DNA of 36,257 nt from positions 1 through 36,257 of IMG/VR virus record IMGVR_UViG_3300013427_000006, one strand, 5' to 3'. Shown here in pieces: positions 15,872-33,911 of the stretch. Position 1 is the stretch's first letter. The number at the start of each line of letters is the position of its first letter. The notes under the pieces were generated by a model, which saw only the letters and a list, made by a program, of their open reading frames with translations, made no database searches and was not told the origin of the DNA. The position numbers and the translations under genes are program-made. Source of the stretch: a virus.

Positions 15872-16510
15872 TCAAAGTCGCAGGTGGTCCTTGAGCCGGG
15901 CGACCAGCACCTGGTCGTAGGTGTCGGCGGCCGGGTCGGCCACCGCGGCGACCACCTGCGCCCGCGGCGGCATGCCGCCTTGGCCGGCCAGCGCCCGGCG
16001 GGCCAGCATCAGGGTGACCAGGTTCTCGTCGGCCATCCCCGCGGCCCGGGCCCGGTCGGCCTGGGCTCCGGACTCGATGACCTGGGCGGCCGGCCGGGCC
16101 CCGGGAATGTCCGCCGGGGTCGGGGTCGAGCTCGCTGCGGTCGCCCGCTTGGGTCGCTCGCGTGCGGCCAGCAGGGCCCCGACCATGTTCACGATCAGCC
16201 GCCGCTCGGCGGCGTTCAGCTCGCTGGCGCGCTCGGGCAGGACGAACGGGGCCCGGACGGTCGCCTCCGACCCGTTGGCCGCCCGCAGCTTGCTGATCGG
16301 GATGCCCAGGGTCTTCGACAGTGCGGTCAGGGTGCCGGGGCGGACCCGCACGGACTGTCCGTGGGCGATCCGCGCGAGCTGGGAGTGGCTGATAGCCCCG
16401 TCGGTGCGCCGCGCCGCCTCTCGTCTCGACAGGCCTTTGCGTTCGAGGGCTGCGACGACCAGGTCCGCGACAGTCGGGGGTTCGTCAATGGGTGGCGTCG
16501 TGGGTGTGAT
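15872..16510 (-). CDS. XRE/Cro-type HTH regulator beside attP, with no canonical start codon
   Basis: The frame encodes a DNA-binding domain (ADLVVAALERKGLSRREAA, then ISHSQLARIAHGQ and LSKTLGIPISKLRAANG) followed by an Ala/Arg-rich C-terminal half. The first conventional start (GTG 16351) falls inside the HTH. Upstream the frame stays open to a TAG that overlaps a perfect AGGAGG (16521-16516). The only initiation candidates between them are ATC at 16510 (5 bases after the AGGAGG), ATT at 16489 and CTG at 16462. I give the ATC start, about 212 residues. The gene is convergent with the lysis genes and reads away from the tRNA-like attP core, so in a prophage it would lie at the end opposite the integrase, a usual site for lysogen-expressed genes. 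Confidence 0.6.
   Translation of the reverse strand: MTPTTPPIDEPPTVADLVVAALERKGLSRREAARRTDGAISHSQLARIAHGQSVRVRPGTLTALSKTLGIPISKLRAANGSEATVRAPFVLPERASELNAAERRLIVNMVGALLAARERPKRATAASSTPTPADIPGARPAAQVIESGAQADRARAAGMADENLVTLMLARRALAGQGGMPPRAQVVAAVADPAADTYDQVLVARLKDHLRL
16489..16508. repeat. 20-base direct repeat, copy 1 (left of attP)
   Basis: The 20 bases TGGGTGGCGTCGTGGGTGTG here are identical to those at 16729-16748, 240 bases away, with attP between. This copy lies in the N-terminal codons of the XRE gene. They could be integrase arm-type sites or a relic of recombination. Confidence 0.55.
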
Positions 16511-16529
16511 CGGGTCCTCCTAACTTGGG

Positions 16530-16577
16530 CGGGAAAGGCTCCTGGCTGGCGTTTGCGCTGGTCAGGAGCCTTTCCCG
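16530..16577 (-). terminator. Stem-loop immediately after the tRNA-like attP core
   Basis: Perfect 15-base inverted arms (16530-16544 and 16563-16577; GGGAAAGGCTCCTG type) flank an 18-base loop. On the minus strand it begins directly after the CCA end of the tRNA-Thr segment, as a tRNA terminator would. After integration it would lie downstream of the rebuilt host tRNA gene and could end its transcript before the XRE gene. It could equally end transcripts arriving on the plus strand. Confidence 0.6.
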
Positions 16578-16628
16578 TGGAGCCGCCTATCGGAATCGAA
16601 CCGATGGCCTATTCATTACGAGTGAATC
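16578..16628 (-). other. attP: attP core: 3' half of a tRNA-Thr(CGT) gene
   Basis: Read on the minus strand this is a precise 3' tRNA half: anticodon stem ATTCA/TGAAT around loop CTCGTAA (anticodon CGT), T-arm ATCGG-TTCGATT-CCGAT, acceptor strand AGGCGGC, discriminator T and CCA. The sequence further upstream does not contain a D-arm or a GCCGCCT acceptor strand, so it is not a whole tRNA. Tyrosine integrases commonly use tRNA 3' halves as the core, and the integrase gene stops only 85 bases away. The predicted attB is the host tRNA-Thr(CGT) gene, which integration would leave intact. Confidence 0.85.
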
Positions 16629-16712
16629 GTCGGCCGTTTCGCGTGGGTCCCTGACCTGCGGAAACCTAGTTTCTGAGCACGAGAACAATCCGTGCAGTGT
16701 CGCGGTTGTCCG

Positions 16713-17969
16713 TCATTGGCCGCGCCCGTGGGTGGCGTCGTGGGTGTGGGTGGGTGGCGCGAACACCGACGCGGCCAGCCCGTCGACGGCCGCCCGGACG
16801 ATCCCCGCCCGCACGTGCGAGTACGTGTTCAACGTCACGCTGATCTGGGAGTGGCCCATCAGCTCCATGACCACCCGGGGGTGGATGTTCGCCTCGAGCA
16901 GCAGCGTCGCGACGGTGTGCCTGGTCCCGGCGTGCTGCACAACCGTTCGCACCCCCGCCGCGGCGGTCAGGGCGTGCCAGTCGGCCAGGTCCTGCTCGGG
17001 GCGCACCGGCAGGCCGGTCTTCCCGGTGAACACCCACCCGCCCGGGGCCCACGCCGGCCCGGCCACCAGGCGTTCGGCCAGCTGGGCTTTGCGGTGCTCG
17101 CGCAGCGCGGCCACCAGCTCGGGCGGGGCGGCGATGTCGCGGATCGAGTCGTCGGACTTGACCGGGCGCCGGACCATCCCGCCACCCTTGGCCCGGTGCG
17201 CGCGCGCCTTCACGGTGATGACCCCGGCGTCCAGGTCGACGTCGTCCCAGACCAGGGCCAGGACCTCACCCTGGCGCATCCCGGTCAGCAGCCCGATCAG
17301 CCACCGCACCCCGGACCGCCTGCTCGCGGCCGCGCCCACGATCTTGGTGACCTCCTCCAGGGTGTAGGAGTCGCCGCGCTGGCGGCGCACCGGCGGCGCG
17401 TCGACCACGTCCGGGTTCAACGTCGTGTAGTCCCGCGCTGCCACCCGCAGGGCCCGGCACAGGATCCGGTGGGCCTTCAGCACCGACGACGGTGCCAGGG
17501 GCGGCCGGCACGTCCCGCAGTGCCCACCCTTGGCGCCAGGGCAGTCCGCCCGCCCACACGGGCGGCCGGCGGCCATGACCGCGTACGCGGCCTCGAGGTG
17601 GTGGGCGCGCAGGGTCGTGTCGAGCTTGCGGCGCCCCAGCAGCGGGACCAGGTGGTGGGTGGTGATCGAGGCGTACGCGTCGTAGGTGTTCTCGGCCACC
17701 CGGCCCTTCGCGGACGTGGTCAGCCAGTACGTCAGCCACGCCCCCAGCGTCGGGGTCCGCCCCTGTGGCAGGGCCCCGCCGGCCATGTCGGCCTTCAACG
17801 TGGCCAGCAGCTCGTGGGCGACCCGCTCGCTGGGCGCGGACCGCTCCCTGGACCGCAGCCGGCCGCCCTCGTCGACCTTCTTGACCCGGGCGACCCACCG
17901 GCCGTCCGAGCTGCGCCGGAACACGGACCCCTCACCGTTGGAGCGCTTCAACGCCCGGCCGCGGGCCAT
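16713..17969 (-). CDS. int: Tyrosine integrase
   Basis: A 418-residue protein starting at ATG 17969, two bases after the lipoprotein stop codon; a longer reading from GTG 18026 would overlap that gene. The N-terminus (SNGEGSVFRR...GRWVARV) is an arm-binding AP2-like domain, the core-binding domain spans about 65-185, and the catalytic domain about 195-395. It shows Arg-232 (TGMRQGE), Lys-271 region, Arg-350/His-351, GHS around His-373 and Tyr-383 (LNTYSHV). The expected H-x-x-R box reads HAGTR, with His one residue early. A Cys cluster (C138, C143, C151, C154) in the core-binding domain may bind zinc. It catalyses attP x attB recombination. Confidence 0.93.
   Translation of the reverse strand: MARGRALKRSNGEGSVFRRSSDGRWVARVKKVDEGGRLRSRERSAPSERVAHELLATLKADMAGGALPQGRTPTLGAWLTYWLTTSAKGRVAENTYDAYASITTHHLVPLLGRRKLDTTLRAHHLEAAYAVMAAGRPCGRADCPGAKGGHCGTCRPPLAPSSVLKAHRILCRALRVAARDYTTLNPDVVDAPPVRRQRGDSYTLEEVTKIVGAAASRRSGVRWLIGLLTGMRQGEVLALVWDDVDLDAGVITVKARAHRAKGGGMVRRPVKSDDSIRDIAAPPELVAALREHRKAQLAERLVAGPAWAPGGWVFTGKTGLPVRPEQDLADWHALTAAAGVRTVVQHAGTRHTVATLLLEANIHPRVVMELMGHSQISVTLNTYSHVRAGIVRAAVDGLAASVFAPPTHTHDATHGRGQ
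16729..16748. repeat. 20-base direct repeat, copy 2 (inside the integrase 3' end)
   Basis: It is identical to 16489-16508. It encodes part of the PTHTHDATH tail of the integrase, beyond the catalytic tyrosine. The pair brackets the attP core at similar distances (about 70 and 100 bases). Confidence 0.55.
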
Positions 17970-17971
17970 CC

Positions 17972-18322
17972 TCAAACCCCGACGGCTTTGCATGCCGCGA
18001 CGAGTTTCGTCGCGGCACTTATCCACGCACCGGTGGCGAAATAGAGGCCTGTGGCCTCGTCAGTCATAGACGCAGTCAGTAGCGAGCGAGCGTTGTCTCT
18101 GACCCCTACGTTCTTCGACCTAGATGCGTTGTCGTCGACCTCCTGGATCCTGCCCTGTGCCTCCCCGGTCGTCACCGTGCGATCGGCGATCTCGGTCAGC
18201 ACCTTACGGAAGTGCCCGCAGGCGAGCTGGGCTGAGGCATCTGCCTTCGGCGCGACCTCTCCACATCCGGCCAGGATCAGTGCCGCCACAGCCACGGTGA
18301 CGCAGGCGAGGGCTGGTTTCAT
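17972..18322 (-). CDS. Small lipoprotein, candidate superinfection exclusion protein
   Basis: A 116-residue protein with a textbook lipoprotein signal: positively charged start, hydrophobic helix and lipobox LAGC with Cys-20. The mature part is about 97 residues, mostly helical, with three further Cys (CGHF, VAACK among them). The ATG overlaps the repressor stop (ATGA), and the stop lies two bases before the integrase start, so it is in the lysogeny operon and should be made in lysogens on the outer face of the membrane. Lipoproteins in this slot block DNA entry of related phages in Streptococcus phage TP-J34 (Ltp). The analogy is positional; no sequence similarity is claimed. Confidence 0.75.
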   Translation of the reverse strand: MKPALACVTVAVAALILAGCGEVAPKADASAQLACGHFRKVLTEIADRTVTTGEAQGRIQEVDDNASRSKNVGVRDNARSLLTASMTDEATGLYFATGAWISAATKLVAACKAVGV

Positions 18323-18777
18323 CGGGACGCACTCACGTCTTTCCTGGGCGTTCGGGGGGAACCCTGCGGCCGCATGCCCCGCACCACCTCCAGTTTGATC
18401 TCGTCGAAGTCCTTGCGGAGCCCGGTGACGTTCGTCTGGATCGCGAGGACCGCAGCCAGCAGCTGCGCGTTGCTGACCTCGGTTGTCGTGGAGGTCTCGA
18501 TCGCCGCGAGGTAGGCCGCGCTCTCCCACTCGGTGTCGATGGGTGGCGGGTCGGCCCCCATCGACACTGCCCTGATCGTTCCTGGTGGCCACCCCAGCGC
18601 CTCCTCGATCTTTCCCTGAGTCGCAGTCTTGGGCCACCGCTGCTCGAGCAGGAAGTCGCCGATGGTGCCAGTGTCCGTGCCGGTCCTGGCGATCAGGTCG
18701 GTGTTGTTCCATTTTCGGTAGGCCAGGACGGCAGCGACGGCACCGGTTGCCCGTCGCTGCCCCGTCGTCTGTGCCAT
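18319..18777 (-). CDS. Immunity repressor (HTH)
   Basis: A 152-residue protein starting at ATG 18777 with GAGG 8 bases upstream; an in-frame ATG at 18846 would begin inside the operator palindrome. Residues about 10-62 form the DNA-binding part (AVLAYRKWNNTDLIARTGTD, then TIGDFLLEQRWPKTATQGKIEEALGWPPGTI), a type seen in actinophage immunity repressors. The C-terminal half is helical and may dimerise. There is no RecA-cleavable peptidase domain, so induction would not be by LexA-like self-cleavage. It is divergent from the Cro-like gene across a 213-base control region and heads the operon repressor-lipoprotein-integrase. Confidence 0.8.
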   Translation of the reverse strand: MAQTTGQRRATGAVAAVLAYRKWNNTDLIARTGTDTGTIGDFLLEQRWPKTATQGKIEEALGWPPGTIRAVSMGADPPPIDTEWESAAYLAAIETSTTTEVSNAQLLAAVLAIQTNVTGLRKDFDEIKLEVVRGMRPQGSPRTPRKDVSASR

Positions 18778-18804: not shown

Positions 18805-18838
18805 CTTGATGTTCCCGGAATCACTAGGGAACATCAAG
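18805..18838. promoter_or_regulatory. Palindromic operator in the repressor leader
   Basis: CTTGATGTTCCC (18805-18816) and GGGAACATCAAG (18827-18838) are perfect 12-base inverted arms with a 10-base spacer, 28 bases ahead of the repressor ATG. The same GTTCCC half-site occurs twice inside the Cro-side promoter, so this is a probable repressor-binding site controlling the leftward operon. On the minus strand TTGATG with GAACAT 17 bases on could be its promoter, embedded in the palindrome. An mRNA hairpin is the alternative. Confidence 0.6.
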
Positions 18839-18990: not shown

Positions 18991-19251
18991 ATGAGCCTGA
19001 AGAATCTCACCGACGCAGAGAAGGCCGAGCGCACGCGCACCGGTGCCACGCTGCGGACGCTGCGCGAGATCCGCGGTTGGAAGCTCGGCACCTTCGCCAC
19101 CGAGATCGGCATCTCGTATGCCTACCTGTCCAACATCGAGGCCGGCCGCAAGCCGCTGACCAACCAGATCCTCGCCAGGAGCGCACTGCTCCTGAAGGTC
19201 GAGCAGATGGCCATCACCCACCCGCGCAGCGAGTCGGCGGTCGCGTCGTGA
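18991..19251 (+). CDS. Cro-like XRE regulator
   Basis: An 86-residue protein. ATG 18991 is chosen although no ribosome binding site precedes it, because the promoter places the transcript start there. Residues about 18-72 are a classic five-helix XRE domain (TLRTLREIRGWKLGTFATE, then ISYAYLSNIEAGRKPL). It is the first rightward gene opposite the repressor, the position of Cro, and probably represses the lysogeny promoter during lytic growth. It overlaps the excisionase gene by 4 bases. Confidence 0.82.
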   Translation: MSLKNLTDAEKAERTRTGATLRTLREIRGWKLGTFATEIGISYAYLSNIEAGRKPLTNQILARSALLLKVEQMAITHPRSESAVAS

Positions 19252-19448
19252 ACGCGCGCACGGCCGCCCCAGGCCTGGCGCCGCTGGCCTACACCATCCC
19301 CGAAGCCGCAGCCCTGCTCGGCGTCGGACGCACCACCGTGTACGAGCTGATCCGCTCCGGTGAGCTGGCTTCGATCCGGATCCGCCGCGGCCGCCGCGTC
19401 ACCCGGGCCGCGATCGAGGCGTACCTGGCCGACCGCACCGCCGCCTAA
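19248..19448 (+). CDS. xis: Excisionase (MerR-like HTH_17)
   Basis: A 66-residue protein with GTG start overlapping the previous stop as GTGA. The whole protein is one winged-helix DNA-binding domain: YTIPEAAALLGVGRTTVYELIRSG followed by the basic wing IRIRRGRRVTRAAIEAYL. This is the layout of Xis-type recombination directionality factors, which bend attL/attR and make the integrase excisive. Its place directly after the Cro-like gene and opposite the integrase operon fits. A simple transcription regulator is the alternative. Confidence 0.78.
   Translation: MNARTAAPGLAPLAYTIPEAAALLGVGRTTVYELIRSGELASIRIRRGRRVTRAAIEAYLADRTAA

Positions 19449-32711: not shown

Positions 32712-32715
<4 letters not shown>
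32320..32715 (+). CDS. VRR-NUC domain nuclease
   Basis: A 131-residue protein (ATGA overlap). It is a minimal VRR-NUC nuclease: an N-terminal helix, HRSDRSEPGWPDLVLV with Asp-53, IRELKS with Glu-66 and Lys-68, and a conserved Gln in VTPAQDEWL. These phage nucleases are thought to resolve branched DNA. Cys in CTNPAHN near the C-terminus is extra. AGGAGA near its 3' end serves the next gene. Confidence 0.88.

Positions 32716-33907
<1,192 letters not shown>

Positions 33908-33911
<4 letters not shown>

What the first reader, a model, noticed from the sequence alone, without database searches (positions are those of the whole stretch)
16713..18777. Lysogeny operon repressor-lipoprotein-integrase, with a candidate exclusion lipoprotein
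The lipoprotein gene overlaps the repressor stop by 4 bases and ends two bases before the integrase start, so all three should be made together in lysogens. A small exported lipoprotein in this slot is the arrangement known for superinfection exclusion in phage TP-J34. No recognisable homology supports it, so it may be a new exclusion protein.
Basis: partly seen in the sequence, partly recalled or inferred. Interest (0 to 1): 0.62.

Follow-up and report, generated by a model that had tools for sequence, protein, structure and literature searches.

The report
Prophage lipoprotein in the lysogeny operon
In an actinobacterial virus that can lie dormant in its host, a small surface-anchored protein is encoded between the dormancy switch and the integration enzyme, where it may help guard the infected cell against rival viruses; it is not the known guard protein it was compared with, but it resembles little-known proteins of Gordonia and Streptomyces phages.

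Summary
On the minus strand lie an HTH regulator (18777-18319), a lipoprotein (18322-17972, ATGA overlap) and a tyrosine integrase (17969-16713, 2-base gap). attP (3' end of tRNA-Thr) lies beyond the integrase, so integration leaves the trio intact. The lipobox is real: the only one among all ORFs of at least 60 aa in the window. Two corrections. (1) It is not Ltp: no Pfam hit, no Ltp hit in the PDB, no two-repeat architecture, neutral mature protein. (2) It is probably not an orphan. Folded without its signal peptide it gives a confident four-helix bundle (pLDDT 87). This matches an unannotated Streptomyces phage Hiyaa protein, which proves to be a lipoprotein with the same Cys...Cys and W-x2-A pattern. 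That set extends to lipoproteins of temperate Gordonia phages Jojo24, Santhid and Reyja, encoded next to repressor and integrase. The link to the window protein is suggestive: 1-3 of 2000 shuffles score as well, but profile E-values are weak. Exclusion of superinfecting phages is the most likely role, by position, export and precedent, but unproven. The 'repressor' label is uncertain: a second repressor-like gene lies just across attP. Expression in lysogens is inferred.

The parts
18319..18777 (-). HTH regulator, likely CI-like repressor (152 aa), first gene of the operon
   Evidence: 31% to immunity repressor of prophiGD11-1 over the N-terminal half, E 5e-3; phrog_7241 regulator, 0.0026; NCBIfam EspM, partial, 1.2e-7; divergent from a Cro-like gene
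17972..18322 (-). Lipoprotein P0001 (116 aa; lipid Cys20, further Cys35 and Cys111), candidate exclusion protein
   Evidence: (four-helix bundle, pLDDT 87)
16713..17969 (-). Tyrosine integrase (418 aa)
   Evidence: nearest relatives are integrases of Streptomyces plasmids/integrative elements (3e-42)
16579..16645 (-). attP core: 3' part of a tRNA-Thr(CGT) gene, downstream of the integrase; the tRNA-derived stretch is unchanged in the sister contig L006
   Evidence: (89% to tRNA-Thr of prophiT36-2b over 16580-16625)
16489..16515 (.). Direct repeat copy 1 (likely integrase arm-type site, P or P' side)
   Evidence: D1, 89% over 27 nt; 20-mer exact, only two copies, also in L006
16729..16755 (.). 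Direct repeat copy 2 (other arm); read in a different frame from copy 1
16530..16577 (-). Strong hairpin between attP core and the next HTH gene, with one compensatory A-U to U-A change in L006
15872..16510 (-). Second repressor-like HTH gene, on the far side of attP; apparent ATC start after AGGAGG
   Evidence: phrog_20450 transcriptional repressor 7.5e-9; immunity repressor of Gordonia phage Leroy, 1e-5
18805..18838 (.). Operator-like inverted repeat CTTGATGTTCCC-n10-GGGAACATCAAG upstream of P0002
18955..18983 (+). Sigma-70-like promoter of the divergent Cro-like gene, with two GTTCCC sites in its spacer
18991..19251 (+). Cro-like HTH protein (86 aa)
   Evidence: HTH_31 9.3e-10
19248..19448 (+). 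Xis-like HTH_17 protein (66 aa)
   Evidence: phrog_66 excisionase 1.1e-11

Best explanation
The three genes form one lysogeny operon. The lipoprotein is made with the repressor in lysogens, exported, lipid-anchored through Cys20 to the outer face of the membrane, and folds into a small four-helix domain whose first and last helices are probably joined by a Cys35-Cys111 disulfide. There it most likely acts as a superinfection-exclusion protein that hinders DNA entry of other phages, working like Ltp but with a different domain. Shown: the gene layout, the lipobox, attP lying outside the trio. Predicted: the fold, the disulfide, the distant kinship with lipoproteins of Hiyaa-type and Jojo24-type phages. 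Inferred: co-transcription, expression in lysogens, and exclusion itself.
For: Gene order and couplings. Lipobox unique in the window. Confident four-helix fold of the mature part. Foldseek: Hiyaa protein prob 1.00, TM 0.65 at rank 2 and a protein named 'Lipoprotein' (ctWDo30) prob 0.99 at rank 3. Hiyaa gp53 is itself a lipoprotein with the same Cys and Trp pattern; alignment with P0001 equalled by 1-3 of 2000 shuffles. Relatives of Hiyaa gp53 and Keanu gp51 in Gordonia phages Jojo24, Santhid, Reyja (E 0.01-0.2, reciprocal 1e-3) sit codirectionally after immunity repressor and integrase. Ten columns invariant over all seven. Precedents: ltp in the same slot, transcribed in the prophage and blocking DNA injection (PMC3952083); CarolAnn genes 43/44 co-expressed with the repressor and defensive (PMC6426606); RexAB genes between repressor and integrase in Sidious.
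Against: No functional or expression data. The profile of the relatives scores P0001 only at E 0.17-2 among about 5,600 ORFs, although as best non-member, and hhalign probability is low. P0001 against the Gordonia proteins directly is not above chance. None of these relatives has a known function, and the Hiyaa-type ones lie among replication genes of phages with no annotated integrase or repressor, so lysogeny linkage is not universal. In the Gordonia phages a strong hairpin separates integrase and lipoprotein.
Confidence: 0.5

Rival explanations
1. A lysogenic-conversion (moron) lipoprotein that changes the host surface or physiology for the host's benefit, without excluding phages.
For: Same position, export and expression are expected. 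The gene has lower third-position GC than its neighbours (0.73 against 0.84-0.96), which suits recent acquisition. Relatives in Hiyaa-type phages lie outside any lysogeny module.
Against: A gene kept by phages without annotated integrase or repressor (Hiyaa, Keanu, Galactica) more likely serves the phage during infection than a long-lived lysogen.
Confidence: 0.27
2. An immunity lipoprotein that protects the lysogen from an exported polymorphic toxin.
For: Several immunity proteins of M. abscessus prophages are predicted lipoproteins and lie near att sites (PMC8092301; LpqN-type lipoproteins beside a toxin in prophiT36-2b).
Against: No toxin or WXG100 gene is next to P0001; the gene sits inside the repressor-integrase operon; the Jojo24-type relatives also lack a toxin neighbour.
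Confidence: 0.06
3. On ancestry: the four-helix lipoproteins of Hiyaa and Jojo24 type are unrelated to P0001; it is an orphan lipoprotein, and fold and Cys pattern agree by convergence. (This rival concerns kinship, not function, and can hold together with any of the others.)
For: Profile E-values 0.17-2 and low hhalign probability; four-helix bundles are common; the Hiyaa protein was the pick of a large library.
Against: A blind structural match turned out to be a lipoprotein with both cysteines and the W-x2-A in register; shuffles rarely reach the alignment score (1-3 of 2000).
Confidence: 0.3
4. P0001 is a spurious or untranslated reading frame in a gap between two genes.
For: Lower third-position GC than neighbours and no good ribosome site; no close homologue in any collection.
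Against: Lipobox, ATGA coupling, exact fit between two genes, and a confident fold from a single sequence.
Confidence: 0.03

Closest known systems
Ltp of Streptococcus thermophilus phage TP-J34 (superinfection-exclusion lipoprotein; PMC3952083)
   Same: Small lipoprotein encoded in the lysogeny module between integrase and CI-type repressor, transcribed against the lytic genes; membrane-anchored outside the cell.
   Different: Ltp has two repeated helical (HTH-like) domains with important negative charges and belongs to a widespread named family; P0001 has one disulfide-type four-helix unit, net charge 0, no Pfam hit and no sequence match.
Lipoprotein gp29 of Gordonia phages Jojo24 and Santhid (gp30 of Reyja)
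   Same: Lipoprotein of similar size with the AC-x2-F, W-x2-A and C-x3-G positions; encoded codirectionally with immunity repressor and tyrosine integrase.
   Different: Order is repressor-integrase-lipoprotein with a strong hairpin before the lipoprotein; direct sequence similarity to P0001 is not above chance; function unknown.
gp53 of Streptomyces phage Hiyaa (Keanu gp51, Galactica gp51, Spocter gp52)
   Same: Lipoprotein; predicted fold matches (prob 1.00, TM 0.65); both cysteines and the Trp in register.
   Different: Lies between helicase and DNA polymerase genes of phages with no annotated integrase; annotated only as hypothetical; function unknown.
RexAB-like genes 43/44 of Gordonia phage CarolAnn (PMC6426606) and rexAB of Gordonia phage Sidious
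   Same: Defence genes co-expressed with the immunity repressor (CarolAnn) or lying between repressor and integrase (Sidious).
   Different: A cytoplasmic plus a four-pass membrane protein acting after DNA injection; not lipoproteins.
Single membrane protein of phage Charlie that excludes Che9c DNA injection (as cited in PMC6426606)
   Same: One membrane protein of an actinobacterial prophage that stops DNA entry.
   Different: Described as a membrane protein; its sequence was not compared here.

Membership tests
Ltp superinfection-exclusion lipoproteins (TP-J34 type) | Signal peptide with lipobox | tested here: met
Ltp superinfection-exclusion lipoproteins (TP-J34 type) | Gene between integrase and CI-type repressor in the lysogeny module | tested here: met
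   TP-J34 order int, ltp, metalloproteinase, crh in PMC3952083
Ltp superinfection-exclusion lipoproteins (TP-J34 type) | Sequence similarity to the Ltp family (Pfam models; solved Ltp structure) | tested here: not met
   no Pfam family at E<=1; no Ltp among PDB sequence matches
Ltp superinfection-exclusion lipoproteins (TP-J34 type) | Two repeated helical domains | tested here: not met
   model shows one unit of four helices, 10-27, 33-48, 53-72, 79-94 of the mature protein
Ltp superinfection-exclusion lipoproteins (TP-J34 type) | Acidic surface that contacts the tape measure protein | tested here: inconclusive
   mature net charge 0; surface patches and partners not tested
Ltp superinfection-exclusion lipoproteins (TP-J34 type) | Blocks DNA injection of superinfecting phages | not testable with these tools
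   needs an infection assay
Hiyaa gp53 / Jojo24 gp29 lipoproteins (unnamed set found here) | Lipobox, Cys in first and last helix, W-x2-A before the last Cys | tested here: met
   ten invariant columns over seven proteins, including both Cys and Trp
Hiyaa gp53 / Jojo24 gp29 lipoproteins (unnamed set found here) | Same four-helix fold | tested here: inconclusive
   Foldseek prob 1.00 and TM 0.65 to the Hiyaa protein but E 0.17; its identification with gp53 rests on length and pattern
Hiyaa gp53 / Jojo24 gp29 lipoproteins (unnamed set found here) | Significant sequence or profile match | tested here: inconclusive
   1-3 of 2000 shuffles for Hiyaa gp53; profile E 0.17 and 2; Jojo24 directly at chance
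Integration-dependent immunity systems of mycobacterial phages | attP inside the repressor gene | tested here: not met
   attP core 16579-16645 lies between integrase and the second HTH gene, in neither; definition from PMC8092301
Tyrosine integrases with tRNA attachment | Phage_integrase domain and attP matching a tRNA 3' end | tested here: met

The most novel reading that the evidence does not exclude
P0001 founds, with the Hiyaa- and Jojo24-type proteins, a new family of disulfide-stapled four-helix lipoproteins used by both temperate and integrase-less actinobacterial phages to keep rival phages from injecting DNA, by a mechanism different from Ltp.
Probability: 0.33. Interest if true: 0.6.

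Novelty: new variant of a known kind. Interest (0 to 1): 0.42.

Why it matters
Few exclusion proteins of actinobacterial prophages are known. Phages of these hosts are used or studied for therapy, and prophages that block infection are a practical obstacle. A small lipoprotein set found next to repressor and integrase in several phages gives a short, testable list of candidates, some of them in Gordonia terrae 3612, a strain with working genetics (PMC6426606).

Tried and rejected
Direct homologue searches with P0001: phages, plasmids, viral contigs and genome contigs gave nothing. Degenerate codon patterns for the AC-x-HF motif gave only unrelated frames. The first structure job, with signal peptide, was too poor to use (pLDDT 60). 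PDB sequence matches to coronavirus spike helices and to centromere protein S were judged helix-composition matches and rejected. Relatives through RecT (L010-L012) have unrelated lysogeny modules. The sister contig L006 shares attP and the integrase end but stops inside the integrase, so it cannot show the lipoprotein slot. Integration-dependent immunity was considered and rejected, since attP is in neither HTH gene.

Full report
What is there. The window is a whole IMG/VR record of 36,257 bases with the genes of a temperate actinobacterial siphovirus: major tail protein, a 1,261-aa tape measure protein and tail genes, endolysin, then the lysogeny region, then RecE-like and RecT-like recombination proteins, ParB-like and replication genes. 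At 16,713-18,777 three genes run on the minus strand against the rest: an HTH regulator P0002 (18777-18319), a lipoprotein P0001 (18322-17972) whose ATG overlaps the P0002 stop as ATGA, and a tyrosine integrase P0003 (17969-16713) that starts two bases after the lipoprotein stop.

Is the lipoprotein real? Yes, with high probability. MKPALACVTVAVAALILAG|C passes the Gram-positive lipoprotein pattern; no other ORF of at least 60 aa in the window does, with any start, and 0.2% of codon shuffles of the gene do. Third-position GC is highest of the three positions though lower than in its neighbours. The mature part, folded alone without an alignment, gives pLDDT 87 and pTM 0.78 with four helices; with the signal peptide attached the same program gave only 60.

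The switch and the attachment site. Upstream of P0002 lie a divergent Cro-like gene and an Xis-like gene. The 213-bp gap holds a perfect 12-bp inverted repeat, a sigma-70-like promoter and four GTTCCC/GGGAAC half-sites against 0.08 expected (a motif picked after the fact). P0002 is therefore probably the CI-like repressor by position, but its own similarity to immunity repressors is weak. attP is the 3' part of a tRNA-Thr(CGT) gene, 16579-16645, downstream of the integrase. Integration therefore leaves the trio whole. The same 20-bp word stands on both sides of the core, once in the end of the integrase gene and once in the start of the next gene, read in different frames, and is kept in the sister contig L006: most likely the integrase arm sites.

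A second repressor-like gene. Beyond attP, after a strong hairpin with a compensatory pair change in L006, lies another HTH gene (16510-15872). It matches repressor families (7.5e-9) and the immunity repressor of Gordonia phage Leroy (1e-5) better than P0002 matches any immunity repressor. In the free phage it follows the integrase; in the prophage it would follow the host tRNA-Thr. So the label 'repressor' for P0002 is likely but not proven, and the claim that the trio is made in lysogens is an inference from position and from precedents.

What the lipoprotein is related to. Sequence searches with P0001 find nothing, and no Pfam, NCBIfam or PADLOC model applies. The model of the mature part, however, matched an uncharacterised 112-aa protein of Streptomyces phage Hiyaa (prob 1.00, TM 0.65, E 0.17) and a protein named 'Lipoprotein' of Siphoviridae sp. 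ctWDo30 (prob 0.99). The 112-aa gene product in the Hiyaa genome that fits, gp53, is a lipoprotein (LLASGC) with AC-x2-F, W-x2-A and C-x3-G in the same order (that it is the listed UniProt entry is inferred from length and pattern). Its alignment with P0001 is equalled by 1-3 of 2000 shuffles, but a profile of the Hiyaa-type proteins ranks P0001 only at E 0.17, as best non-member among 5,527 ORFs. Keanu gp51, of the same set, leads to lipoproteins of Gordonia phages Jojo24, Santhid and Reyja (E 0.01-0.2; reciprocal E 1e-3 to Galactica gp51). In those phages the lipoprotein gene follows immunity repressor and tyrosine integrase on the same strand. Seven proteins share ten invariant columns, among them the lipid Cys, both other Cys and the Trp. 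With the Gordonia proteins in the profile P0001 is still the best outsider but at E 2, and P0001 against Jojo24 gp29 alone is at chance. I put the kinship at about 0.7. The set is rare: of 19 phage records searched whole with it, only the Hiyaa and Jojo24 records matched.

How it most likely works. Ltp of TP-J34 lies in the same slot, is transcribed in the prophage and blocks DNA injection from outside the membrane (PMC3952083). Genes co-expressed with the repressor defend Gordonia against other phages in CarolAnn (PMC6426606); [quoted passage not shown] Sidious carries RexAB-like genes between repressor and integrase. By position, export and this precedent, exclusion is the leading role for P0001 (about 0.5). 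That relatives occur in phages without an annotated integrase or repressor fits a protein that works for the phage during infection. The domain differs from Ltp: one four-helix unit with a probable Cys35-Cys111 disulfide, net charge 0, no repeat. The target, whether incoming tail parts or a host membrane protein, is unknown.

Verdict. Observation confirmed; interpretation partly supported. It works perhaps like Ltp but is not an Ltp. The new point is a small, scarcely annotated lipoprotein set that recurs beside repressor and integrase in Gordonia phages, where it can be tested directly.

Noticed in passing
window 15872-16510 (-): The second repressor-like HTH gene has no ATG/GTG/TTG in a plausible place; an ATC codon stands 5 nt after a perfect AGGAGG, and this start is unchanged in L006. 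A rare start codon on a regulator, if true.
   Followed up: partly
window 16489-16645 (-): Integration would move this HTH gene from behind the integrase to behind the host tRNA-Thr gene, with a strong hairpin in between: a possible integration-dependent change of its expression without truncating any gene.
   Followed up: partly
window 16489-16508 and 16729-16748: Exact 20-bp direct repeat flanking the attP core, in two genes and two reading frames, kept in L006: probable integrase arm sites.
   Followed up: yes
L006 11138-12057 (-): In the sister contig the second HTH gene is split: it stops after about 122 aa and the remainder follows as a separate frame with a GTGA overlap, whereas the window has one fused protein.
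   Followed up: no
window 16713-17969 (-): The integrase is closer to integrases of Streptomyces plasmids and integrative elements (E 3e-42) than to those of any listed phage record (best about 3e-25), although the phage genes around it are ordinary.
   Followed up: partly
L050 3785-3935 (Jojo24): Between integrase and lipoprotein lies a very stable hairpin, followed by TACAGT about 9 nt before a likely lipoprotein ATG: possibly a terminator plus a leaderless promoter of its own.
   Followed up: partly
window 32712-33911 (+): The encoded protein has a long Ala/Val/Asp low-complexity stretch (VADAVADAAA...) that looks like an expanded repeat.
   Followed up: no
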